A stretch of 23,102 nt of DNA from a virus. Where the stretch lies: IMG/VR virus record IMGVR_UViG_3300036909_000142, positions 1 through 23,102 of that record; one strand, 5' to 3'. A program made the translations under genes and the position numbers. The notes beneath the pieces were generated by a model. The model did no database searches, was not told the origin of the DNA, and saw only the letters and a list, made by a program, of their open reading frames with translations. Below, in pieces: positions 1,086-15,794 of the stretch (positions are counted from its first letter, which is position 1; each line of letters starts with the position of its first letter).

Positions 1086-1137
1086 GCCGCCGGCCGGCTT
1101 TAACCAGCAACTCCCCGCCGGCCGGCGGCTCGTTTTG
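1086..1137 (+). terminator. GC-rich hairpin, likely terminator of the tail/HNH operon
   Basis: A perfect 12-bp inverted repeat, GCCGCCGGCCGG at 1086-1097 and CCGGCCGGCGGC at 1118-1129, encloses a 20-nt loop and is followed by TCGTTTTG. This is the form of a Rho-independent terminator with a short, imperfect U-tract. It lies 125 bp after the HNH stop and ends just before the next start codon. The loop contains TTTAACCAG, which recurs in the loop of another hairpin at 18082-18120. The rest of 962-1085 holds no convincing gene. TTGACC at 1054-1059 could be a -35 box, but no good -10 follows. Confidence 0.55.
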
Positions 1138-1140
1138 ACT

Positions 1141-1953
1141 ATGGCTCGAAGCAAACCATCCGCCGAACCGCTCGCGTACATCGCAGTCGATCTAAGGCCG
1201 CTGGCCGTGCCCTTGGGCGACGTGCTGCTTGACCCGCGCAACTCCCGGGCCCATCCCGAATCAAGCATCGTGGCGATTGCGGCGAGCCTGGAGCGGTTCG
1301 GACAACGGACGCCTATCGTGGCCGTGCGGGGGACTCGGATCATCATCAAAGGCAACGGCACCCATCAGGCAGCGGTACGGCTGGGTTGGACGCACATTGC
1401 GGTAAGCTGGGTGGATGACGACGACGCGACGGCCCGGGCCTACTCGCTGGCTGACAATCGCAGTCAGGAACTTTCGGGTTGGAACGACGCGGAATTGGCG
1501 GAAGCAATTAAGGCCCTGTCGGCCAGCGATGAAGCGTTGACCGAGGCCCTCTCGTTGGAACTGCTGGCCAGCCAGCGGGACTTGTTTGCCATCGCGGACG
1601 GCGTGGATCCGAAGGCGCCGGGGGAGGTTCCCGAGGCTATCAGCGAGGAATCGCAGAAGCTCAAGGAGTTCATCGAGCGGCGGAAGGCATCGGTCGCCCG
1701 GGGCAACGACAAGGCGGAAGTCAATTTCTGGGTCTGCCTGGTGTTTCAGTCCTGGCTGCAAAAGATGGAGTTTTTGTCGAAAATCGCCGACGTGCCAGTG
1801 CTCTATGGAATGTACGCCAACGGGGAGGTATTGGCGGCTAAAGTGGGGCTTCCAGTGACTCCCAACGCGCAGAAGGTGATTGAATCGCCGCTTGACAAAA
1901 AGCTAACAGCGTTGGTACTCTTAACGAAAGACCCTGATCTTGTTACGTCGTAA
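1141..1953 (+). CDS. ParB/sulfiredoxin-fold nuclease-like protein
   Basis: A 270-residue protein from the ATG at 1141; an in-frame TTG two codons earlier is also possible. Residues about 23-115 match the phage-type ParB nuclease domain: PLGDVLLDPRNSRAHPESS, then an IAASLERFGQRTPIV segment, then IIIKGNGTHQAAVRLGW, where the usual GHGR box reads GNGTHQ. The segment ends with the family-typical YSLADNRSQELSGWNDAELA. Such domains in phages sit beside methyltransferases or PAPS-reductase-like genes and have been linked to DNA binding, nuclease or CTPase-like activity. The second half (about 130-270) is not recognised. A small gene and a PP-loop gene follow closely, suggesting one operon. The altered motif box makes enzymatic activity uncertain. 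Confidence 0.8.
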   Translation: MARSKPSAEPLAYIAVDLRPLAVPLGDVLLDPRNSRAHPESSIVAIAASLERFGQRTPIVAVRGTRIIIKGNGTHQAAVRLGWTHIAVSWVDDDDATARAYSLADNRSQELSGWNDAELAEAIKALSASDEALTEALSLELLASQRDLFAIADGVDPKAPGEVPEAISEESQKLKEFIERRKASVARGNDKAEVNFWVCLVFQSWLQKMEFLSKIADVPVLYGMYANGEVLAAKVGLPVTPNAQKVIESPLDKKLTALVLLTKDPDLVTS

Positions 1954-2089: not shown

Positions 2090-2998
2090 ATGCTCGGCAC
2101 TCCGGCATCGCGTAAAGTATGCGAAGAAGTCGCCTCCCTATCCGGGGAGGCGATTTTCTTAGGTTTCAGCCGCGGCAAGGATTCGGTGGCCGCATGGCTG
2201 TGGTTGCGCGAGTTCTTTCCGCGCGTGATCCCGTTTCACTGTGCGACATTGCCCGGGCTGGGGTTCGTCGAGCGGTCCCTCACGTATTATGAGGAGTTCT
2301 TTCAGACGCCGATCCTCCGTTGCGTGAGCGCCGACTTGTGCATGGCGTTGTCCGATCTGGTTTACCAGCCATGCGAGGACGAGGATTGGATCGACGCCCT
2401 GGCACTGTCGCCGGCCGCCGACAACGATCAGGTAGTGCGGCAGTTGCGGGCCGCCTACGGGTTGCCTTCCGCCTGGGTCGCCTGGGGCATCAGCGCAACC
2501 GATTCGATTGTTCGCCGGTCGGCTAAAAAGTATCAGACCGGCAAGAGCGAAAAGAACCGCACGTTGTACCCGTGCTTCGACTGGCCACGCGCCTTGATTC
2601 TGAACGCCATCGAGTCCGCTGGCGTGAAGCTAGCGGAGGATTACACGATGGGCAACCGCTCCTTCGCCGGTATCCCTGGAGTCCGGCACTTGGATCGCAT
2701 GCGCGAGCTATATCCCGAGGACTTCGAGCGCGTGAAATTCTTTTACCCGTTTTGCGAGGCCACGCTGGCCCGCAACGACTTCCGGCGGATGAGCGTCGCC
2801 ACCTCGAACAAGCCCAGCTTGCCGGACACGGGGATCGGCTCGACCGGCTCGACTTCTGCCAGCACCCAAGCCCAATCCTCTGCGCTGCCGAGTTCACCCG
2901 GGCAGCCGGCCGCCGCTTCATCCACGCCGACGCGGAAACGCCGGCAGTCCACCAGTCGGACCACGGCCACGGCAACGCCGACCGGCTCCGAACCGTAG
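2090..2998 (+). CDS. PAPS-reductase-like PP-loop protein
   Basis: A 302-residue protein. An N-type ATP-pyrophosphatase PP-loop is visible at residues 27-32 (SRGKDS) after the strand AIFLGF, as in phosphoadenosine-phosphosulfate reductase and IbrA/DndC-like proteins. The next strand reads VIPFHCATLPG, and the conserved region appears to continue to about residue 235. After that the tail is low-complexity Ser/Thr/Pro-rich. This tail (2743-2998) is exactly antisense to the ASCH gene, so it may be a by-product of a convergent overlap and not a domain. The Cys motifs of true PAPS reductases (ECGIH) are not seen, so sulfate reduction is unlikely; an adenylation or nucleic-acid-linked role is more plausible. 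A strong binding site (GGCGGAGG) sets the start. Confidence 0.75.
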   Translation: MLGTPASRKVCEEVASLSGEAIFLGFSRGKDSVAAWLWLREFFPRVIPFHCATLPGLGFVERSLTYYEEFFQTPILRCVSADLCMALSDLVYQPCEDEDWIDALALSPAADNDQVVRQLRAAYGLPSAWVAWGISATDSIVRRSAKKYQTGKSEKNRTLYPCFDWPRALILNAIESAGVKLAEDYTMGNRSFAGIPGVRHLDRMRELYPEDFERVKFFYPFCEATLARNDFRRMSVATSNKPSLPDTGIGSTGSTSASTQAQSSALPSSPGQPAAASSTPTRKRRQSTSRTTATATPTGSEP

Positions 2999-3123
2999 GG
3001 CTTTTTCGCCGCGCAGATTAACAGCGGGCCGCGATATTTCGTCGGCCAGGACCGGCACTCGATAGTTTTCTCGCCGCGCGCGATCATCGACGCCCAAGGC
3101 TGCCGCACTGAGAGCGCCTTCAT
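2743..3123 (-). CDS. ASCH-domain protein
   Basis: A 126-residue protein on the minus strand with a very recognisable ASCH opening: MKALSVRQPWASMIARGEKT, followed by IECRSWPTKYRGPLLICAAK. The GxKxxExR motif appears as GEKTIECR (residues about 17-24). The C-terminal GKLGLFEVA matches the usual end of the domain, so the gene is near full length. ASCH domains have a PUA-like fold and are thought to bind RNA; some relatives act as ribonucleases or amidohydrolases. The start overlaps the stop of the XRE gene by 4 bp (ATGA), showing translational coupling in a leftward operon. The 3' part overlaps the convergent PP-loop gene by 256 bp. No substrate can be assigned. Confidence 0.85.
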   Translation of the reverse strand: MKALSVRQPWASMIARGEKTIECRSWPTKYRGPLLICAAKKPYGSEPVGVAVAVVRLVDCRRFRVGVDEAAAGCPGELGSAEDWAWVLAEVEPVEPIPVSGKLGLFEVATLIRRKSLRASVASQNG

Positions 3124-3356
3124 CGCGACATGCCTTCCCGGACAATCAGGCTGTCGGCCGTGACGCCGAGCGCGTCGGCCAGCCGCGCCAGCGTTTCAGC
3201 GATGGGAGCGCGCTTGCCGCCCTCCATCACTGAGAGATGCGACTGCCGGACGCCGGCCAGCGCCGCGAGGGCCTCCTGAGTCAGTTTTTGTTCCAGACGC
3301 AGCGCGCGGATGCGTGCGCCGGTAGTGTCTGCCGGCTTTTCTGTTTTCTTTTTCAC
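3120..3356 (-). CDS. XRE-family helix-turn-helix regulator
   Basis: A 78-residue protein starting at GTG, with AGGAG 9 nt upstream on the minus strand. After a Lys-rich start (MKKKTEK), residues about 14-70 form a Cro/C1-type HTH: ARIRALRLEQKLTQEALAAL, then AGVRQSHLSVMEGGKRAPIA with the recognition helix, then ETLARLADALGVTADSLIV. It has no extra dimerisation or protease-sensitive domain, so it is a short regulator like those controlling phage switches or toxin-antitoxin pairs. It is co-transcribed with the ASCH gene. The palindrome filling the spacer of the leftward promoter (3991-4007) is the obvious candidate operator, which would make the operon autoregulated; that link is inferred. Confidence 0.88.
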   Translation of the reverse strand: MKKKTEKPADTTGARIRALRLEQKLTQEALAALAGVRQSHLSVMEGGKRAPIAETLARLADALGVTADSLIVREGMSR

Positions 3357-4080: not shown

Positions 4081-4210
4081 GTATTTTCGGGAACAACTAC
4101 CCCCCGTACGCAGAAAACCATTACAGAATAACACCTTACGGAAACTAAACCGCGAAAATAGCCTAAAACAGCCTGTTTGGTAATCTAGGTAATCGTAGCG
4201 AAAACCAACA

Positions 4211-4260
4211 AGTCAGCACAAGTCAGCACAAGTCAGCACAGGTCAGCACAAGTCAGCACG
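4211..4260 (+). repeat. Five tandem 10-bp repeats upstream of terS
   Basis: Five adjacent copies of AGTCAGCACA: three identical, the fourth beginning with G and the fifth ending with G. One copy per helical turn means a protein bound to each would sit on the same DNA face. Directly upstream of terS this resembles terminase recognition sites (pac or cosB-like) or iterons. A binding array for a regulator of the late promoter about 60 bp further on is the alternative. Confidence 0.75.
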
Positions 4261-7573: not shown

Positions 7574-9286
7574 ATGCTCATTGAGAAACTCGACTCGACT
7601 TACGACCCGTCGGAATGGTTGATAAATTGGTTTTCCGGCGGCGAGCCCACGGCCAGCGGCGAGCACGTCAATGAGGATACGGCGATGCGGATTCCCGCCG
7701 TCCGCGCTACAATCAACGTCCGCGCTGAAGCGATGGAAGTGCTACCGATACAAATTTTCCGTAAGGAAAAGTCGGGCCGCCAGACGCTGGTAGACGATCA
7801 TCCGGTTTTGGATTTACTGAACCGCAAGCCGAATGAAGAGATTGCCGCGCCTGAAATGTGGTACGGGATGCAACGCGATAGCGACCTGTTTGGCAACGGC
7901 TTCGCCGTGATTCAGCGCACGGGACGGGGCGATCCGGTGGGACTGTGGAAGCGGGATGCGCGGCCGGAAAAAACCAAGATGATGCGCGATCCAAAGACGA
8001 AAAAACTTTTCTTCCGCTGCCGCGACGAACAGGGGCAGGACCAAGACGACGTGCCGCTGGAGGACATGCTGCATGTAAAGTACAACAGCAAAAACACGCT
8101 GGCCGGCAAGTCTCCGGTGAACGACTTGAAAGAGGCCATCGGCGGCAACAAGGCGGCCGAACGGTATTGCAACGAACTATTCGCTAACGGCGCGGCGCTC
8201 GAAGGCCACTACACCAGCCCGAAGAAAATGAGCCTGCCAGCCTATCAGCGATTAACGCATTCCATCGAGGAATCCGCCCAGCACGGCAATCGCCATAAAC
8301 GTCCACTGCTCGAAGAGGGCATGACGTTTGAGCAAGTCACTTTCGACGCCAACAACGTGCAGATGATCGAGGGTCGCAACTTTATGATCGTCGAAGTGGC
8401 CCGTATCTGGCGCGTGAATCCGTACTTGATTTTTGTAGCGGCCTACGGCGCCAAGGCCCCGGCTGAGTTGTTCCGTGAGTTTATGATGCTCACGATGATG
8501 GCGGTCTGTACGATGTGGAAAGGGGCCATCGACCTGCGATTGCTCAAGCCGCCCTACTCTTGTCAGTTCGACATGAAGAAATTCATGGAGGGCGACCCCG
8601 CCGCGCAGTCGGCGTGGTATCGGACCATGTTTACAATCGGGTATTACTCGCTTAATGAAATTCGGCGAGAGCAGGGAGCCAACCCCATTGTCGATTCCAC
8701 GGGCAAGCCGGACCCCAACGCCGACGAGCATTTCGTACCGCGCAACATGATCCCGCTTTCCAAGTGCAACGATTCAGCCTGGGCGTTGGGAAAAAACGGC
8801 GCGGACGGCGTTACGCCCGCCCCTGGGGCAGTGTCCGGCGGCGACGGCTCGACCCCGGCCGAACCGGGCGACTTGCCGGCGACAGAAGCCCGGTCGGCAA
8901 ACCAAGCGGCCTTGTTCGATCCGCGCGTCGAGCAGCTTGCGGCCAGCGAGGCGGTGCTGACCGCCGCGATCCACCGCATGGAACGAATCGCTCGCAATGA
9001 GGCCATCCGCGCCGCCAAAGACCCGGCAAAATACTCCGCCCGCCTGGATGCATTCTGGATCGACCACGGCAAGGTGCTGGAAGAGGCGTTGCGGTTGCCG
9101 CTGCGGGCGGTGGCGGCGATCCGTGGGCCAGCCAATGGCTTCCACTCGACCGATGAAGAGTTGTCGGCCATGATTGGCGAGTACACGCAAGAGAAACGCG
9201 AGGCGTTGCTGAAGGCGGCGGAGTGCCGGCCGGAGGAACTGGCCGCCCGCGTGGCAGAGGCTGTGAAAGATTGGGGTTGCCCGTGA
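7574..9286 (+). CDS. Phage portal protein, HK97 family
   Basis: A 570-residue protein with GGAGG 7 nt before the ATG. Hallmarks of the HK97 portal family are a start region with DTAMRIPAVRATINVRAEAM (about 36-55), PIQIFRKEKSGRQTLVDDHP, LLNRKPNEEIAAPEMWYGMQ (the conserved NP..S/A..F-type segment), DLFGNGFAVIQR, MLHVKYNSKNTLAGKSPVND and FEQVTFDANNVQMIEGRNFM followed by EVARIWRVNPYLI. The portal core ends near residue 410. After a Gly/Pro/Ala linker (GADGVTPAPGAVSGGDGSTP) there is an extra helical, Ala/Glu-rich C-terminal part of about 140 residues. It forms the dodecameric ring through which terminase pumps DNA. Confidence 0.94.
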   Translation: MLIEKLDSTYDPSEWLINWFSGGEPTASGEHVNEDTAMRIPAVRATINVRAEAMEVLPIQIFRKEKSGRQTLVDDHPVLDLLNRKPNEEIAAPEMWYGMQRDSDLFGNGFAVIQRTGRGDPVGLWKRDARPEKTKMMRDPKTKKLFFRCRDEQGQDQDDVPLEDMLHVKYNSKNTLAGKSPVNDLKEAIGGNKAAERYCNELFANGAALEGHYTSPKKMSLPAYQRLTHSIEESAQHGNRHKRPLLEEGMTFEQVTFDANNVQMIEGRNFMIVEVARIWRVNPYLIFVAAYGAKAPAELFREFMMLTMMAVCTMWKGAIDLRLLKPPYSCQFDMKKFMEGDPAAQSAWYRTMFTIGYYSLNEIRREQGANPIVDSTGKPDPNADEHFVPRNMIPLSKCNDSAWALGKNGADGVTPAPGAVSGGDGSTPAEPGDLPATEARSANQAALFDPRVEQLAASEAVLTAAIHRMERIARNEAIRAAKDPAKYSARLDAFWIDHGKVLEEALRLPLRAVAAIRGPANGFHSTDEELSAMIGEYTQEKREALLKAAECRPEELAARVAEAVKDWGCP

Positions 9287-9693
9287 CACACAAACCGCAA
9301 CGTATCGCACGTATACCATTCCGACTCCCCGATGGCTTCGCCGACAATGGCGAACAACTTGTGCAATTGATGGATATTCATCTAATGTGCGAGGGCTACC
9401 GGCGTGTTCCAGACAACGAGTTGAGGTTAGCCGCCGTCGTGTTTCATTGCTTTTGCGAATCATCAGGCTTGCGTTGCTGCCAGTGCTTTCCGTGCGACAG
9501 TCCCGATAAGTTTTGGGAATTCCGCGCTAAGTCGCCTTGTGGTAGGTATGCGTGCGGCGTGGCGGTGGAGATGTCGCTTTTCTCCGACTGTGGCCCATCG
9601 CCGAAAACGATTGTTAATGCAATCACAAGGCACCTGAATCGCGGTTTTGAGGACTTCGCCAGAACACACCAAGGAGTGAACCATGTCGAGTGA
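9283..9693 (+). CDS. Hypothetical Cys-rich 136-residue protein
   Basis: The GTG at 9283 is preferred because it makes a 4-bp GTGA overlap with the portal stop; a longer frame from 9223 would run inside the portal gene. The middle is unusually Cys-rich (FHCFCESSGLRCCQCFPC, later CGRYACG and DCG), which could bind zinc or iron-sulfur or simply reflect cytoplasmic thiols. A helical C-terminus follows (KTIVNAITRHLNRGFEDFAR). No family is recognised. It overlaps the next gene by 11 bp. Confidence 0.65.
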   Translation: MTHKPQRIARIPFRLPDGFADNGEQLVQLMDIHLMCEGYRRVPDNELRLAAVVFHCFCESSGLRCCQCFPCDSPDKFWEFRAKSPCGRYACGVAVEMSLFSDCGPSPKTIVNAITRHLNRGFEDFARTHQGVNHVE

Positions 9694-10820: not shown

Positions 10821-12245
10821 ATGGCGTTTTCCTACGATACGAAACCTATTTCCAGCGAACAACTCGACGCCGAACCGATTGACACCGTACTCGGCAAAGT
10901 GACGGTCGCTGCCCAGCCGGCCGGTGATGGCCTCTACACCCTTACCGGGCAGCTTTCTGCCGTCAATGAAACTTCCACCCGTTGGCAGCGCGTCCAAGTG
11001 GCTCACCTGATGGCCGTCGGCGAGGCTGGCCGCAAGATCGGCGTGGACCGAAAAAACGAAGTCATCCACGGCTGGATACTGGCCCAGGCCGGCCCGTTCA
11101 AGTCGGATGGCCGCGGCGAGTTCGACGACAAATCGCTAGCCCTGATTCTCAGTCAGGCCCGCAAGGCGCCCAACGGGCTCAAGTCGCGGCTGGCCCACCC
11201 CAACGAATCCAACGACGGGATCGGCAAGCTGCTGGGCCGGGTGAAAGACCCCTACCCGGATTTTGTGGTTCCCAAGGAATCGGAAGGCCAGCCCGGAGGC
11301 GGCCGGGTCGCGTGCGTGCGAGGCGACTTGCATATCGACCCGTCGGCGCACAAGGCCGAGTTCGATATGGCCGAGTGGCTGATGACGGTTTGCGAGTCGG
11401 ACCCGGACGCGATTTCTTCGAGCCTCGTGCTTGACAACCAATCGGAATATCGAATCAAGCCCGACGGCACGCCGATGCTGGATGCGGACGGCGACCCGCT
11501 GCCGCCGCTATGGCGCCCAACGGTCCTGCACGCCTCGGATTGCGTCGATACCGGCGACGCAGTCGATGGCCTATTGTCGGCCAGCATACCAGCCGAGGCC
11601 CTTTCGGCGATGCCCAACGGCCTGTTATGGCAGGCGGAGAAAATGCTCAATCAGCAGTTCGCCGGTAAGGACCGCGAGTTCATCGAGGGGCACCTACTCA
11701 CCTTCCTGTACCGCTACCTCGACCGGCGATTCACGGGTGAGAAGCTGACTGGACTGGAGCGCCGCAACCGGAAGATCGAATCTGAGCGGGATAGCAAGAT
11801 TGCTGCGGCACTCAACGGCACGCTGGAAGAACGGCCGGCCGTGGTTGTGGGCAGCGAGCGAATCCTGCAAGCTGGCCCGGCGCACCGTCTGGCGATGGGC
11901 GAGGATGGCCCGGCCGGCGACGTGGTGCCCACGGAACAGGCTGGCCCGAAGCACGATGGCTGCCGGAGCACGCTGGCCTTTCACTCGGTAACGCTTTGCC
12001 GATTGTGCGGAGCGGAAATGTCGGGTTGCGGTTGCGACCATCGGGGGCTCGAATCGCGGGTTACGATTCTGGCCAAGGAGCCGTGTGCGGCGTGCCTGGC
12101 TGCCGACCCGTCGCATGACGGCGCACCGGCCAGCCCGCCGGACACGCCCGACCAGGCCCCCGATCCTGAAAACCCGCAAGGCGTAAGCAAGCTGCCGGAT
12201 CGGCGGCGGCTGGAACTGGACGCGATGACTTTTGAGGAGGACTGA
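10821..12245 (+). CDS. Probable prohead maturation protease, with Cys-rich tail
   Basis: A 474-residue protein with AAGGAGG 5 nt before the ATG. Residues 80-205 carry the pattern of HK97/herpes-type prohead proteases: a strand with HGWILAQAGPF, then LKSRLAHP (H126 as candidate catalytic His), a GIGKLLGRVKD strand, VACVRGDLHIDPSAHKAEF (H171 in the strand before), and DPDAISSSLVL, where S199-S201 hold the likely nucleophile. Its place between portal and capsid genes fits. The part after residue 300 is unusual: a charged linker, then C381, a CxxC pair at 393/396, a CxC pair at 403/405 and a CxxC pair at 422/425, suggesting one or two zinc-binding knuckles, and an acidic disordered end. The tail may act as scaffold. 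Confidence 0.65.
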   Translation: MAFSYDTKPISSEQLDAEPIDTVLGKVTVAAQPAGDGLYTLTGQLSAVNETSTRWQRVQVAHLMAVGEAGRKIGVDRKNEVIHGWILAQAGPFKSDGRGEFDDKSLALILSQARKAPNGLKSRLAHPNESNDGIGKLLGRVKDPYPDFVVPKESEGQPGGGRVACVRGDLHIDPSAHKAEFDMAEWLMTVCESDPDAISSSLVLDNQSEYRIKPDGTPMLDADGDPLPPLWRPTVLHASDCVDTGDAVDGLLSASIPAEALSAMPNGLLWQAEKMLNQQFAGKDREFIEGHLLTFLYRYLDRRFTGEKLTGLERRNRKIESERDSKIAAALNGTLEERPAVVVGSERILQAGPAHRLAMGEDGPAGDVVPTEQAGPKHDGCRSTLAFHSVTLCRLCGAEMSGCGCDHRGLESRVTILAKEPCAACLAADPSHDGAPASPPDTPDQAPDPENPQGVSKLPDRRRLELDAMTFEED

Positions 12246-12257
12246 AAATCTTTTCAG
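12242..12257. promoter_or_regulatory. Palindrome at the head of the accessory unit
   Basis: CTGAAAA (12242-12248) and TTTTCAG (12251-12257) form a perfect 7-bp inverted repeat with a 2-bp centre. It overlaps the protease stop and ends 9 bp before the -35 box at 12266. The centre is too short for a good RNA hairpin, so an operator for one of the regulators in the unit is the better reading. Confidence 0.4.
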
Positions 12258-12265
12258 ATTACCCG

Positions 12266-12293
12266 TTGACGCGGCCGCCGCTCGCGTTATATT
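12266..12293 (+). promoter_or_regulatory. Strong sigma-70-like promoter
   Basis: TTGACG (12266-12271) and TATATT (12288-12293), each 5/6 to consensus, are 16 bp apart. Transcription would start near 12300, leaving a leader of about 190 nt before the next gene. That leader contains the interleaved inverted repeats and the short hexamer tract. This is one of the best promoters in the window and separates this unit from the morphogenesis operon. Confidence 0.65.
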
Positions 12294-12303
12294 TACGGGC
12301 AGT

Positions 12304-12393
12304 GAGCTTTGCGGGCTTCCCATAAACGACAATTCACGCCGCCGGTTTTTCATGCGCTCTCGGCCCGCAAAGCTCGCATGGAGGATCGGCGGC
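12304..12393 (+). promoter_or_regulatory. Leader with two interleaved inverted repeats
   Basis: GAGCTTTGCGGGC (12304-12316) pairs perfectly with GCCCGCAAAGCTC (12363-12375). GCCGCCG (12338-12344), inside that loop, pairs with CGGCGGC (12387-12393), outside it. The two helices cross, so they either form a pseudoknot or exclude each other. Each second-helix arm is followed by a T run (GGTTTTT at 12344-12350, CTTTTT at 12393-12398). This suits an attenuator or structured leader RNA. No protein-coding gene is supported in 12246-12491. Confidence 0.5.
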
Positions 12394-12404
12394 TTTTTGC
12401 GCGT

Positions 12405-12452
12405 TGGCGATGTCTGTGGCCTTGGCAATGGCACTGGCACTGGCGATGGCGT
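12405..12452 (+). repeat. Short TGGCNN hexamer tract (8 units)
   Basis: Eight consecutive in-phase hexamers: TGGCGA, TGTCTG, TGGCCT, TGGCAA, TGGCAC, TGGCAC, TGGCGA, TGGCGT. The last ends 25 bp before the binding site of the gene at 12492. The unit and its type of variation are the same as in the long tract at 13119-13478, so the gene between them is bracketed by the same repeat. Confidence 0.85.
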
Positions 12453-12491
12453 TGTTTTTTTTCCTATCCCACTCTTGAAAGGACGTTTCAA

Positions 12492-13112
12492 ATGGAAGCT
12501 CGCGTAACAATTTCGATGACCAACTACATCGCGCACCCTTACTGGCCGGCGCGTAACCGCGTGATCGAGATCGAAAAAAAGTCCGGCGTCAACCGGCAAA
12601 AGTCGGACGAAAAGCGGCAGGCCGCGCTCAAAGCCGAGTGCGAGAAAGAGGGCTACACGCTCGCCCAATATGAGCAGTTCAAGATCGATGCGGCCGAGCA
12701 GTGGTATCGCCGTGAGGGCAAGATCATCATTCCGCGCCACCAACTGGCGGGCGCTTTCGTTCAGGCAATCGGCACGTCGCCCAAGGCCCTCCGCGGCGCG
12801 TTTGACAAAGACAACTTTCGCGCCTTGATTCAACTCGGCGACTTCGTGACCAACCGCACGAAAGCCGATGGAATGTTTTCCCGCTTCGCCAAACTGGAGG
12901 GCAGCAACCAGCGGAGTTTCCAGGAAAACGAGTACATCGGACGTTACCTGGACGTGGGCGAGCCGTTCGAGGCGACGGGCGTGATCGGCATTCCGAATCC
13001 GAAGCACGCCGACACCGTGAAGTCGCTCTTGTGCCACGTTGTTGAAATGATCGGCGTGGGAGCATCGCGGAAGATGGGATTCGGCCGCGGCGTAGTGAAA
13101 AGCTGGGACTGA
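12492..13112 (+). CDS. RAMP-like (Cas7-like) protein of unknown function
   Basis: A 206-residue protein with AAAGGA 8 nt before the ATG; a longer frame from 12309 would translate the hexamer tract and has no binding site. It opens with a beta strand (MEARVTISMT), then a Lys/Glu-rich helical insertion (residues 28-75). KIIIPRHQLAGAFVQ (77-91) sits where RAMP proteins have their helix after strand 1. The end is a predicted strand (FEATGVIGIP), a helix and the glycine-rich loop GVGASRKMGFGRG (188-200), the hallmark of Cas5/6/7-type RNA-binding folds. A phage family of unknown function shares this plan. No CRISPR array or cas gene is present. RNA binding is inferred from the fold-like pattern only. 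Confidence 0.5.
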   Translation: MEARVTISMTNYIAHPYWPARNRVIEIEKKSGVNRQKSDEKRQAALKAECEKEGYTLAQYEQFKIDAAEQWYRREGKIIIPRHQLAGAFVQAIGTSPKALRGAFDKDNFRALIQLGDFVTNRTKADGMFSRFAKLEGSNQRSFQENEYIGRYLDVGEPFEATGVIGIPNPKHADTVKSLLCHVVEMIGVGASRKMGFGRGVVKSWD

Positions 13113-13118
13113 AATCCT

Positions 13119-13478
13119 TGGCTCTGGCACTGGCCTTGGCCCTGGCAATGTCGCTGGCCCTGGCAATGTCGCTGGCCGTGGCACTGGCGGTGGCGATGGC
13201 AATGACTTAGCTGGTGGCGATGGCAATGGCACTGGCGATGGCATTGGCGATGACTTAGCTGGTGGCAGTGGCACTGGCAATGTCGCTGGCAATGGCCCTG
13301 GCGGTGGCGATGGCAATGACTTAGCTGGTGGCGATGGCTCTGGCACTGGCTTTGGCACTGGCTGTGGCGGTGACGATGACTTAGCTGCTGGCCCTGGCAA
13401 TGGCATTGGCGATGGCATTGGCCCTGGCGGTGGCGGTGACGATGACAGTGGCAATGTCGCTGGCAATGGCCTTGGCCG
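13119..13478 (+). repeat. Tract of 60 uninterrupted TGGCNN hexamers
   Basis: From 13119 to 13478 the sequence divides into exactly 60 hexamers with no insertion or deletion. Most are TGGCNN with the last two bases free. Variants are TGTCGC, TGACGA, TGACAG and the pair TGACTT-AGCTGG (C), which recurs at 13203, 13251, 13317 and 13377. A 41-nt stretch is repeated exactly at 13184-13224 and 13298-13338, 19 units apart. One plus frame reads Gly-X throughout without a stop but has no start codon; the Ala/Leu frame has four TAG stops. The flanks (13113-13118, 13479-13542) show no gene. It follows the RAMP-like stop by 6 nt. Confidence 0.95.
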
Positions 13479-13555
13479 AAGCACGGCAGGTCGTTGGGCT
13501 GCGGCGGGAACAAGGGTTTTGTGTCGAGTAACATTTCTACTTAAAGGAAAAGTTT

Positions 13556-14575
13556 ATGAAGTTGACATTGAAATGGATTGACGACCTACTGGCGGAGGCT
13601 GATTTTCGGGCAATGAATATTCCTTTTTCCGTGAAAGAGATTCGTTTTTCGCAAATCGACCTTTATGAATCGTGCCAAAACGGGGCGAGGCTTGGCGATC
13701 AGGTGGTTGCTGAACTGGTGTCCGATTATGCGCAGGCCATGCGCAATGGTGCTCCTTTTCTGAGAATGGCCGCCTATCTTGGAAAAGCCGGTTACGTCCT
13801 GACCTCGGGCGTGCAGCGAAGCTGTTCCTTCAAGGAGCTTATCGACGCCGGGGATATTTCAGGTGACCCGCTGATCGAGATTTACGCACTCCAGACCAGT
13901 GATAAGATGCTCATCGAGGGCATCACGCGATCCGCTAATGTCCCGCATGGAGGCCGGTCGAATCTTGGGGAGCGGATGTCCAACGCCGTACACATGGTGC
14001 GCGTGCTTGGCATGACGACTGTCGACGCTAGAAAACTTTTCATGGTGTCGGAGTCAGCCATTAACATGCGAATCAGGGTCGATGCTCTTCGCAAGAACCT
14101 TGGCGAGAAGGGTATTGATACGTCGCGGGTTCCAGCATCCACAATGGAATGTTTGGGCCAGATCGACAACGACGATCACGCATTTACTCAACTCGCCACA
14201 CTGGTCAGCCAACATGTGCCGAGCTGTTCGCGGGTCGATACGTTCGTTAAGCGAATCAAGAAGGCAAAGTCTGATGGCGACCGCGGTAAGGTCGTAAAGC
14301 AGATCGAAAGCGAACTTGCGGAAGAATCGCGAGAATTCAAAAACCGCAAGAAGGCCCGCATTACGGCGCCCAAGGCCCCATCTCGTCCGTGGCGAGACAA
14401 GTTCGTTCAGTCGCTATCGAAGCTGGCTGATTTTCTGGACTTCGGCCATGACGGCGAGGGATTCGACCGCCTCACTACCCTCCAGGTCGCGACCCAGGTC
14501 GATGAAAAGGCCGTGCGCGATTTATGGGCGCGGCTGGAACTTCGGATGTCGCTGGTATTGAAGAAAGGCTGGTGA
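13556..14575 (+). CDS. Divergent ParB-like protein with helix-turn-helix
   Basis: A 339-residue protein with AAAGGA 7 nt before the ATG. Residues about 27-112 look like a degenerate ParB N-terminal domain (EIRFSQIDLYESCQNGARLG, an LVSDYAQAMRNGAPF helix, YVLTSGVQRSCSFKELI). In the box usually reading DGxHR, GVQR takes its place. Residues about 120-178 are the stronger part: EGITRSANVPHGGRSNLGER, then a helix and LFMVSESAINMRIRVDALRK, as in the KorB/ParB HTH (A..AN..HG.R...). The remaining 160 residues are helical, with a Lys/Arg-rich stretch near 265. It probably binds DNA as a regulator or partition-like factor. By eye it is AT-richer than the structural genes around it, which suggests separate origin. 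Confidence 0.6.
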   Translation: MKLTLKWIDDLLAEADFRAMNIPFSVKEIRFSQIDLYESCQNGARLGDQVVAELVSDYAQAMRNGAPFLRMAAYLGKAGYVLTSGVQRSCSFKELIDAGDISGDPLIEIYALQTSDKMLIEGITRSANVPHGGRSNLGERMSNAVHMVRVLGMTTVDARKLFMVSESAINMRIRVDALRKNLGEKGIDTSRVPASTMECLGQIDNDDHAFTQLATLVSQHVPSCSRVDTFVKRIKKAKSDGDRGKVVKQIESELAEESREFKNRKKARITAPKAPSRPWRDKFVQSLSKLADFLDFGHDGEGFDRLTTLQVATQVDEKAVRDLWARLELRMSLVLKKGW

Positions 14576-14576
14576 C

Positions 14577-14972
14577 ATGGTCTGCAAGAAAATCCGCACG
14601 GTGTTTGCTACGCAACGCTTTCCGATGTACTCTCGGCAAGTGCTTGATTTTCTGGCGGACGGCCAATGGAAGGGCCACCAATATTTAGCGACACTTCTTT
14701 CGTTGGAGTGCCCACCAGAGTATGCCGCACGACACGCAAGAACGGCAAGCGGATATGGTCACGGCAGAATATCTAACGTGAACCTTCCGATGGATCAACT
14801 ACTCCAAAAAGGATACCGTAGTCTTGTTTCGCGCATGTTGTCACAGTTTTTTGTTTCTGGTTTGATTGAAAAGAAGAAACTTGACGGTCAGACCTATTAC
14901 CGCTTGACGCAGAAAGGAATCGCGGATCATGCAAAGCAAGAGGCTGCTAAAGCTCGACCTGTTGCGCCTTGA
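14577..14972 (+). CDS. Winged-helix-like small protein
   Basis: A 131-residue protein beginning 1 nt after the previous stop, with AAAGG 8 nt upstream. Residues 18-43 (YSRQVLDFLADGQWKGHQYL plus ATLLSL) look like the first helices of a winged-helix domain, and SQFFVSGLIEKKKLDGQTYY followed by RLTQKGIADH (89-118) looks like its recognition helix and wing, as in MarR-like or phage replication-organiser proteins. A loop of about 40 residues separates the halves. It overlaps the next gene by 44 bp. DNA binding is inferred; the target and family are not recognised. Confidence 0.6.
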   Translation: MVCKKIRTVFATQRFPMYSRQVLDFLADGQWKGHQYLATLLSLECPPEYAARHARTASGYGHGRISNVNLPMDQLLQKGYRSLVSRMLSQFFVSGLIEKKKLDGQTYYRLTQKGIADHAKQEAAKARPVAP

Positions 14973-15693
14973 CGGTGGGACGCAGCCGAGAACGGACATT
15001 GACCATACGGTGGTCGATGAATACTCCGACGCCTACGCGGCTGGCGCTAAGTTCCCGGCAGTTATAGTTTTCTTCGACGGAAAAGTCTATTGGCTATCGG
15101 ATGGCTTCCACCGCTGGTGGGCGGCCCGTAAAGCCGAGCGGAAAACGATCCTATGCGAAATCCGCAACGGCACCCAATTTGATGCCCAGTGGTTCTCGTA
15201 TTCCGCGAACCGAACGCACGGCCTGCACCGGGACAGCCGCGATAAAGTAAATGCCGTCCAGGCGGCGCTCTTGCACCCCAACGCCGCCAAGATGAGCGAC
15301 CGGATGATTGCCGAGCACGTCGGGGTTAGTAATCGCATGGTTACTAAATACCGCAGTGTACCAACTGTGAACCGTTCCCAGTTGACACAATCGGTAAGCC
15401 CGGCAAGCCGGGAGGGATTGGACGGAAAGCGACGTAGGCCACCCCGTCCGCGCGGTGGAAAGCCGGCAGAGCCAGTGTCGCCAATTGGCGACAACCTGCC
15501 CGTGGAAGAAGCCGAGGAAGAAACGATCCCAGATAATCCGATTCCGAAGCCGGAAAAATCCAAACTCTGTGGCGCGATGGAAGTTGCGATTCTAAAGTGC
15601 TGGAAATCCTTCGAGTCTTCCGATTCGTCTGTTGTGGCAGCAGTGCTGGAAAGCGTTGCCGAGCGAATCAGAAACGGGACAATAGCAGTCTAG
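14929..15693 (+). CDS. ParB-like nuclease-domain protein with HTH
   Basis: A 254-residue protein. The ParB domain spans about residues 6-100: LDLLRLDGGTQPRTDIDHTV, EYSDAYAAGAKFPAVIVFFD, YWLSDGFHRWWAARKAERKT (the DGxHR box is intact), then WFSYSANRTHGLHRDSRDKV. A HTH follows at about 105-142 (NAVQAALLHPNAAKMSDRMI, EHVGVSNRMVTKYR). After it comes a Pro/Arg/Glu-rich linker and a helical end (EVAILKCWKSFESSDSSVVA). This resembles ParB-HTH proteins common in mobile elements, thought to act as regulators or in DNA partition. Start at the ATG at 14929, with GAAAGGA 10 nt before. A terminator follows its stop, so it is the last gene of the unit. Confidence 0.8.
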   Translation: MQSKRLLKLDLLRLDGGTQPRTDIDHTVVDEYSDAYAAGAKFPAVIVFFDGKVYWLSDGFHRWWAARKAERKTILCEIRNGTQFDAQWFSYSANRTHGLHRDSRDKVNAVQAALLHPNAAKMSDRMIAEHVGVSNRMVTKYRSVPTVNRSQLTQSVSPASREGLDGKRRRPPRPRGGKPAEPVSPIGDNLPVEEAEEETIPDNPIPKPEKSKLCGAMEVAILKCWKSFESSDSSVVAAVLESVAERIRNGTIAV

Positions 15694-15707
15694 TTTTTGT
15701 CAGAGAG

Positions 15708-15744
15708 TGCCCGGCCCGGGGCGTGAAACCCCCGGGCATTTTTT
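15708..15744 (+). terminator. Rho-independent terminator
   Basis: TGCCCGG (15708-15714) pairs with CCGGGCA (15732-15738) and is followed directly by a run of six T (15739-15744). It lies 15 bp after the stop of the second ParB-like gene and closes the accessory unit. Confidence 0.85.
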
Positions 15745-15766
15745 CTAAATTCCGCGTAGCAAACCC

Positions 15767-15794
15767 TTGACAATCCCCGGAGCCGTCTGATACT
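15767..15794 (+). promoter_or_regulatory. Promoter for the capsid and tail genes
   Basis: A perfect TTGACA (15767-15772) and GATACT (15789-15794, 4/6) are 16 bp apart, immediately after the terminator. Transcription would start near 15801, giving a leader of about 175 nt before the capsid gene. A GTG-started frame in the leader (15804-15992) overlaps the capsid start and has no binding site, so no gene is called in 15795-15976. Confidence 0.7.

What the first reader, a model, noticed from the sequence alone, without database searches (positions are those of the whole stretch)
12246..15744. Autonomous accessory unit inserted between protease and capsid genes
The morphogenesis order is interrupted by 3.5 kb with its own promoter (12266-12293) and terminator (15708-15744), and a new promoter restarts capsid transcription (15767). 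Its contents are a RAMP-like protein, two ParB-like/HTH proteins, a winged-helix-like protein and hexamer tracts. These are regulatory or nucleic-acid-binding, not structural. The genes from 13556 to 15693 look AT-richer than the flanks. This is the layout of a moron carrying a system such as lysogenic control, partition or anti-phage defence.
Basis: partly seen in the sequence, partly recalled or inferred. Interest (0 to 1): 0.7.

Follow-up and report, generated by a model that had tools for sequence, protein, structure and literature searches.

The report
Hexamer-guide VIPR-like system in a phage
A phage carries, as optional cargo between its protease and capsid genes, a small RAMP protein related to the ancestor of CRISPR proteins, with a long six-base-repeat array that looks like a store of RNA guides; it resembles the newly described VIPR anti-phage systems but uses a six-base instead of a five-base repeat unit.

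Summary
The 3.5-kb accessory insert is real: the capsid relatives lack it or carry other cargo at the same site. Its core is not a four-gene set. It is one RAMP gene (12492-13112) plus TGGCNN hexamer arrays (13119-13478; short piece 12405-12452). Thirteen RAMP loci in all were found (12 virus records including the window, 1 Planctomycetota genome); 12 of 13 have such an array beside the gene, and the RAMP is the only gene shared between the window and the others. The arrays keep a strict 6-nt register, a fixed Y-G-B-Y tetramer and a near-random NN dinucleotide. Between close relatives the NN changes, and indels come in multiples of 6. The RAMP is a distant homologue of Vipr (PHROG 4652; profile-profile E 8e-8), the protein of VIPR, an RNA-guided phage-encoded system reported in 2026 whose guides are pentamers (YNNGG). 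Nine SUSP1-type VIPR loci all show period 5, ours period 6; the two protein sets are separate clades. Conclusion: a hexamer variant of VIPR, most likely an RNA-guided repressor of rival phages. Guide transcription, processing and the target-reading rule are inferred; no natural target was found. In one lineage the arrays are written into genes, including recT, as Pro-rich linkers.

The parts
12246..15765 (+). accessory insert between the protease-position gene (10821-12245) and the capsid gene (15977)
   Evidence: synteny with L155 (other cargo), L156 and L157 (site empty)
12266..12293 (+). promoter-like site, unproven
   Evidence: 10 of 12 consensus bases, but number of sites in the region at chance level
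12405..12452 (+). short upstream hexamer array, 8 units (T-G-G/T-C-N-N), followed by a T-run
12492..13112 (+). Vipr-like RAMP protein, 206 aa, Gly-rich loop GVGASRKMGFGRG; AGGA at 12480-12483 before ATG
   Evidence: 12-sequence alignment A3; PHROG 4652 shared with Vipr; hhalign against Vipr E 7.6e-8
13119..13478 (+). hexamer array, 60 units of TGGC-NN type, candidate guide-RNA array
13203..13212 (+). separator 1, TGACTTAGCT
   Evidence: recurrent GAC..AGCT separators in L002, L136, L137, L160
13251..13260 (+). separator 2, TGACTTAGCT
13317..13326 (+). separator 3, TGACTTAGCT
13377..13386 (+). separator 4, TGACTTAGCT
13556..14575 (+). 339-aa ORF without significant match; in the insert but not conserved with the RAMP
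14577..14972 (+). 131-aa ORF, weak HTH/regulator-like matches; not conserved with the RAMP
14929..15693 (+). 254-aa ParB-like protein; not conserved with the RAMP
   Evidence: PHROG 1033 E 1.9e-19
15714..15743 (+). terminator-like hairpin with T-run
15767..15794 (+). promoter-like site before the capsid gene, unproven
   Evidence: a similar TTGACT...TATATT lies before the capsid gene in L155 (sequence)

Best explanation
The insert carries a hexamer variant of the VIPR system. The RAMP gene makes a small Vipr-like protein. The flanking arrays are transcribed as guide RNAs. In these the tetramer Y-G-B-Y (TGGC here) is the protein-binding scaffold that repeats every 6 nt, and the variable NN dinucleotides carry the address. 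The GAC(NN)AGCT motifs mark the boundaries between guides of mostly 8-13 units. By homology to VIPR, RAMP subunits would coat the RNA and the NN pairs would recognise double-stranded DNA of competing phages or satellites non-contiguously, repressing their transcription. Shown here by computation: homology of the protein to Vipr, the array unit, linkage of array and gene in 12 of 13 loci, hypervariability of NN, and the cargo-site position. Inferred: transcription and processing of the arrays, coating, DNA targeting, the target spacing, and the role against rival phages.
For: RAMP homology: PHROG 4652 matches all 9 known-type Vipr proteins (SUSP1 Vipr E 1.4e-96) and 6 of 12 of our RAMPs (best 3.5e-6). 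hhalign of the two alignments gives E 7.6e-8, probability 94.5, 159 columns including the G-loop; score 55.7 against at most 21 in 30 column shuffles and 26.9 reversed. A search of 145 genomes of the phylum of L046 (Verrucomicrobiota) with our profile brought up one locus with a YNNGG pentamer array. Linkage: a DNA-only scan for the array found a new RAMP locus, L009, and the protein profile found 11 virus loci, 10 with a period-6 array beside the gene, plus one Planctomycetota genome with array and terminator. Unit: period 6 in all array-bearing loci, period 5 in all nine SUSP1-type loci; consensus Y-G-B-Y-N-N. Hypervariable NN: entropy 3.4-3.6 of 4 bits against 0-1.6 in 12 ordinary TGGC-type hexamer repeats without a RAMP. 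L141 against L142: all 6 array indels are multiples of 6 and 90 of 118 mismatches fall in NN. Non-coding in L002 and in the Planctomycetota genome: stops in all six frames. Several SUSP1-type VIPRs also sit among morphogenesis genes. System description: PMC13142463.
Against: No natural target of any hexamer guide was found, so neither the 1-nt skip rule nor any DNA targeting is supported directly for hexamers. No RNA data. The unit is not the published pentamer, and in the distant clade it is not GGY but GCY/GTY. No conserved accessory (vap) gene. One RAMP relative (L145) has no array in the stretch seen. Sense-strand array RNA of the window is not less structured than shuffles (z -0.09).
Confidence: 0.75

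Rival explanations
1. The RAMP is an RNA-binding protein that coats hexamer-repeat RNA for a structural or autoregulatory role, such as control of its own mRNA or packaging, without any guide function; NN varies only because it is not contacted.
For: Arrays often end just 5' of the RAMP start codon and several lie inside mRNAs of other genes; no targets found.
Against: Homology to a protein shown to use such RNAs as guides (PMC13142463). Separators divide the close-clade arrays into blocks of guide-like length.
Confidence: 0.17
2. The four genes RAMP, 13556, 14577 and 14929 form one operon-encoded system (partition, lysogeny control or defence) with the hexamer tract as a minor element.
For: They are adjacent on one strand with a terminator after the last; DNA-binding-type matches for 14929 and weakly for 14577; some VIPR types have DNA-binding accessory proteins (PMC13142463).
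Against: No homologue of the three ORFs beside any other RAMP; GC differs from RAMP and array; 77 nt between array and 13556.
Confidence: 0.1
3. The array is a microsatellite or a coding repeat (Gly-X, Ala-X or Pro-X) and its place beside the RAMP is chance.
For: One sense frame is open through the window array; hexamer repeats of TGGC type exist in many bacterial genomes.
Against: Stops in all frames in L002 and L160; NN entropy far above ordinary repeats; linkage in 12 of 13 loci; where the arrays are coding, one synonymous third position is 98% G and the other is free, which codon use cannot give.
Confidence: 0.02

Closest known systems
VIPR (Viral Interference Programmable Repeat), type II as in Escherichia phage SUSP1, PMC13142463
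   Same: Phage-encoded single small RAMP with a Gly-rich loop, homologous by profile; flanking arrays that alternate a fixed motif with hypervariable NN; guide blocks of similar unit number; several members placed as cargo among structural genes.
   Different: Unit is a hexamer (Y-G-B-Y-N-N, TGGCNN here, CGYCNN in a second clade) instead of the pentamer YNNGG; the proteins form a separate clade (support 100/99); no conserved accessory gene; separators GAC..AGCT instead of the SUSP1 tail; one lineage has arrays inside coding genes; target rule unknown.
Class 1 CRISPR-Cas RAMPs (Cas6, Cas7, Cmr6)
   Same: Weak sequence matches at the Gly-rich loop (Cas6 Pfam E 0.13; Cmr6 in PDB E 0.07); the Cas7 backbone also covers RNA in 6-nt steps (established knowledge).
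   Different: No CRISPR array or other cas gene recognised in the window; far weaker matches than to Vipr.
Short hexamer repeats (microsatellites) of bacteria
   Same: Some share the TGGC tetramer.
   Different: Only 1-4 different NN, against 13-16 here, and no RAMP within the fetched stretch.

Membership tests
VIPR | Vipr-family RAMP protein | tested here: met
   PHROG 4652 shared; hhalign E 7.6e-8 with shuffle and reversal controls
VIPR | Single RRM fold with G-loop and thumb | not testable with these tools
VIPR | Flanking repeats alternating a fixed motif with hypervariable NN | tested here: met
VIPR | Pentanucleotide unit YNNGG (GGY/NN) | tested here: not met
   period 6 in all array-bearing loci against 5 in nine known-type loci. 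The window unit GGC-NN-T contains GGY-NN plus one T; the second clade has GCY/GTY. The preprint allows 'a related consensus' (fig. S17), which could not be read.
VIPR | Phage or provirus location | tested here: met
   window and 11 other IMG/VR records; one bacterial genome with an integrase-like ORF nearby
VIPR | Accessory vap gene next to vipr | tested here: not met
   no shared neighbour in 13 loci; the preprint says 'typically', so not decisive
VIPR | vrRNA expressed and bound by the protein | not testable with these tools
   only indirect: + strand terminator right after the array in L160
VIPR | Conserved structured 3' tail of the guide | tested here: inconclusive
   short GAC..AGCT separators recur in five loci; no Rfam match; no conserved fold tested
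VIPR | Target read by NN with a 1-nt skip | tested here: inconclusive
   no target found with skips 0-4 in fetched loci, nor with skip 1 in IMG/VR (exact) or 294 genomes of the Planctomycetota phylum (up to 3 mismatches)
Class 1 CRISPR-Cas | cas genes and CRISPR array | tested here: not met
   no cas match beyond weak Cas6/Cmr6 G-loop hits; repeats of the array are not CRISPR-like

The most novel reading that the evidence does not exclude
A second non-contiguous guide code: a clade of Vipr-like proteins reads hexamer guides with its own scaffold and perhaps its own target spacing. In one lineage (L141-L143) the guide arrays are written inside protein-coding genes, including recT, in the one frame that always yields a Pro-[Ser/Thr/Ala/Pro] linker, so that one stretch of DNA encodes both a protein linker and a guide array. 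A unit of 6 instead of 5 makes this possible because it keeps the reading frame.
Probability: 0.4. Interest if true: 0.85.

Novelty: new variant of a known kind. Interest (0 to 1): 0.72.

Why it matters
VIPR is proposed as a forerunner of CRISPR and as a minimal programmable DNA binder. A sister clade with a hexamer unit shows that the repeat length and the scaffold bases can change with the protein. That gives a natural comparison to work out how RAMP proteins set the register of guide and target. It also extends the system to phages of other, probably Planctomycetota, hosts. Arrays that double as protein linkers would be a new way to store guides.

Tried and rejected
Coding or microsatellite origin of the array: rejected. 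Four-gene operon as the conserved unit: rejected. Known RNA families, including hammerhead ribozymes, in 13 loci: none at gathering threshold and none with E up to 1 in the window insert. RAMP relatives in GenBank phages and plasmids: none; in the genome collection by short peptides: none. Pattern TGACTTAGCTNNTGGCNNTGGC gave chance coding matches besides the true contig. Natural targets: none; the scans covered few guides, needed exact matches in IMG/VR, and the pattern crosses degenerate separators of L137, so it was a poor test. Folding of array RNA: close-clade sense strand like shuffles (z -0.09 and -1.76), distant-clade sense strand less structured (z 2.6); not informative on strand. NN composition as a test of the codon-wobble rule: ambiguous. 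A period-6 null from loci fetched with the TGGC pattern was biased and not used. Supplement of the preprint could not be read.
Full report
What was checked. The window is a 23,102-base IMG/VR virus record. Terminase, portal and capsid genes are clear by Pfam and PHROGs; the gene at 10821-12245 has no family match but is conserved between portal and capsid in relatives, so it is called the protease-position gene. The insert lies between it and the capsid gene. The promoters are consensus matches at chance number.

Is the insert an accessory? A capsid search in IMG/VR found three relatives. In L156 and L157 (capsid 47% identical) the capsid follows that gene after about 0.3 kb. In L155 (58% identical) the gap is 2.2 kb and holds an 88-aa ORF, two further ORFs that look by eye like a WbqC-type protein and a methyltransferase, and, just before the capsid gene, a solo array of about 24 YNNGG pentamers with a terminator-like hairpin. 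So the site is a cargo site, and two phages of one family carry two different VIPR-like elements there.

What travels with the RAMP. The RAMP had no relative in GenBank phages or plasmids. IMG/VR gave one relative at 54% identity (L002) with a different flank but the same TGGCNN array right after the gene. As a blind test I scanned IMG/VR with a DNA pattern of the array alone. It found L009, which carries a RAMP with an array on each side. A profile of three RAMPs then found 11 virus loci at 30-66% identity; 10 have a period-6 array next to the gene, many ending just before the start codon. A search of 294 genomes of the Planctomycetota phylum found one more, with RAMP, array, the same type of separators and a terminator on the same strand. 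An all-against-all comparison shows that the RAMP is the only gene shared by the window and the other loci.

Anatomy of the array. The unit is Y-G-B-Y-N-N: TGGCNN in the window's clade and CGYCNN in the distant clade. The second base is G in 87-100% of units of every array, and the two N carry 0.03-0.46 bits of information. The array of the Planctomycetota genome, which is AT-rich, is looser (TGAC/TCAC-NN). The window array has 60 units and four TGACTTAGCT separators; blocks in the close clade are mostly 7-16 units long, with longer ones where separators are degenerate. Ordinary TGGC-type repeats in loci without a RAMP have 1-4 different NN (entropy 0-1.6 bits), while these have 13-16 (3.4-3.6 bits). 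L141 and L142, whose genes are 94-99% identical, differ in the arrays: all six indels are multiples of 6 (6-72 nt), and 90 of 118 mismatches fall in NN. The arrays of L002 and of the Planctomycetota genome have stops in all six frames.

Comparison with what is known. A literature search brought up PMC13142463: VIPR, phage-encoded RAMP proteins (Vipr) with guide RNAs of 9-16 YNNGG repeats, where the NN dinucleotides read double-stranded DNA with a 1-nt skip and repress rival phages. I took SUSP1, placed its Vipr by gene size, position and flanking YNNGG arrays, and collected eight homologous loci. PHROG 4652, which is the Vipr family, also matches 6 of 12 of our RAMPs. Profile-profile comparison gives E 7.6e-8 with clean controls. 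With one statistic, all nine SUSP1-type loci peak at period 5 and all array-bearing virus loci of ours at period 6 (the Planctomycetota locus). The two protein sets are separated by one branch with support 100/99. The preprint's main text does not mention hexamers, but it allows 'a related consensus' in a figure that I could not read. So the finding is filed as a variant, not as a plain member.

Mechanism. The step from homology to function is inference: the RAMP coats the array RNA, the tetramer is the scaffold, and the NN pairs are the address. I looked for natural targets with skips 0-4 in the fetched loci, and with a skip of 1 in IMG/VR and in 294 genomes, and found none. This is a weak test because the host and its rival phages are not known and the IMG/VR scans required exact matches. 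Rivals are a non-guide RNA-coating role and a four-gene operon.

A further feature. In L141-L143 three arrays lie inside ORFs that are conserved on both sides of the array or end with it. One ORF is a RecT-family protein (Pfam E 1.1e-11). All nine cases use the frame that reads Pro-[Ser/Thr/Ala/Pro]. In that frame one codon class has 98% G at its third position and the other has 39/19/19/24% A/C/G/T, while the rest of the ORFs has 9/45/36/10%. Codon choice cannot produce this, so a nucleic-acid code overlies the protein code. This supports the view that the arrays are selected as RNA or DNA, and it suggests why a frame-neutral unit of 6 could be favoured.

Limits. The host of the window phage is unknown; Planctomycetota is suggested only by the single genomic relative.

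Noticed in passing
L155:7534-7700: Solo pentamer (YNNGG, about 24 units) guide-like RNA with a terminator-like hairpin just before the capsid gene of a phage related to the window phage; no Vipr gene recognised in the 14.5-kb record.
   Followed up: partly
L141:7009-7134, 8266-8670, 9340-9591; same genes in L142 and L143: Hexamer arrays inside coding genes (RecT family and two others) read as Pro-[STAP] linkers with one third codon position fixed as G.
   Followed up: yes
L162:2400-2700: A genome in the phylum of L046 (Verrucomicrobiota) carries a Vipr-like gene with two pentamer arrays, found by the hexamer-RAMP profile (E 4e-4).
   Followed up: partly
window 4208-4259: Tandem repeat ACAAGTCAGC, 5.2 copies, before the terminase genes; possible iteron or binding site.
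   Followed up: no
window 3120-3356 and 2743-3123, - strand: XRE-like repressor ORF (by eye) next to an ORF that looks like an ASCH-domain protein, on the opposite strand; possible lysogeny region.
   Followed up: no
window 1135-1953 and 2090-2998: ParB-like protein (PHROG 620, E 3.5e-27) and a protein similar to phage phosphoadenosine phosphosulfate reductases (PHROG 2302, E 1e-11).
   Followed up: no
window 12304-12316 / 12363-12375: Perfect 13-nt inverted repeat (GAGCTTTGCGGGC) in the leader between the promoter-like site and the first hexamer piece; function unknown.
   Followed up: no
L145:8798-9451: RAMP relative (31% identical) without any period-5 or period-6 array in the 19-kb stretch.
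   Followed up: partly
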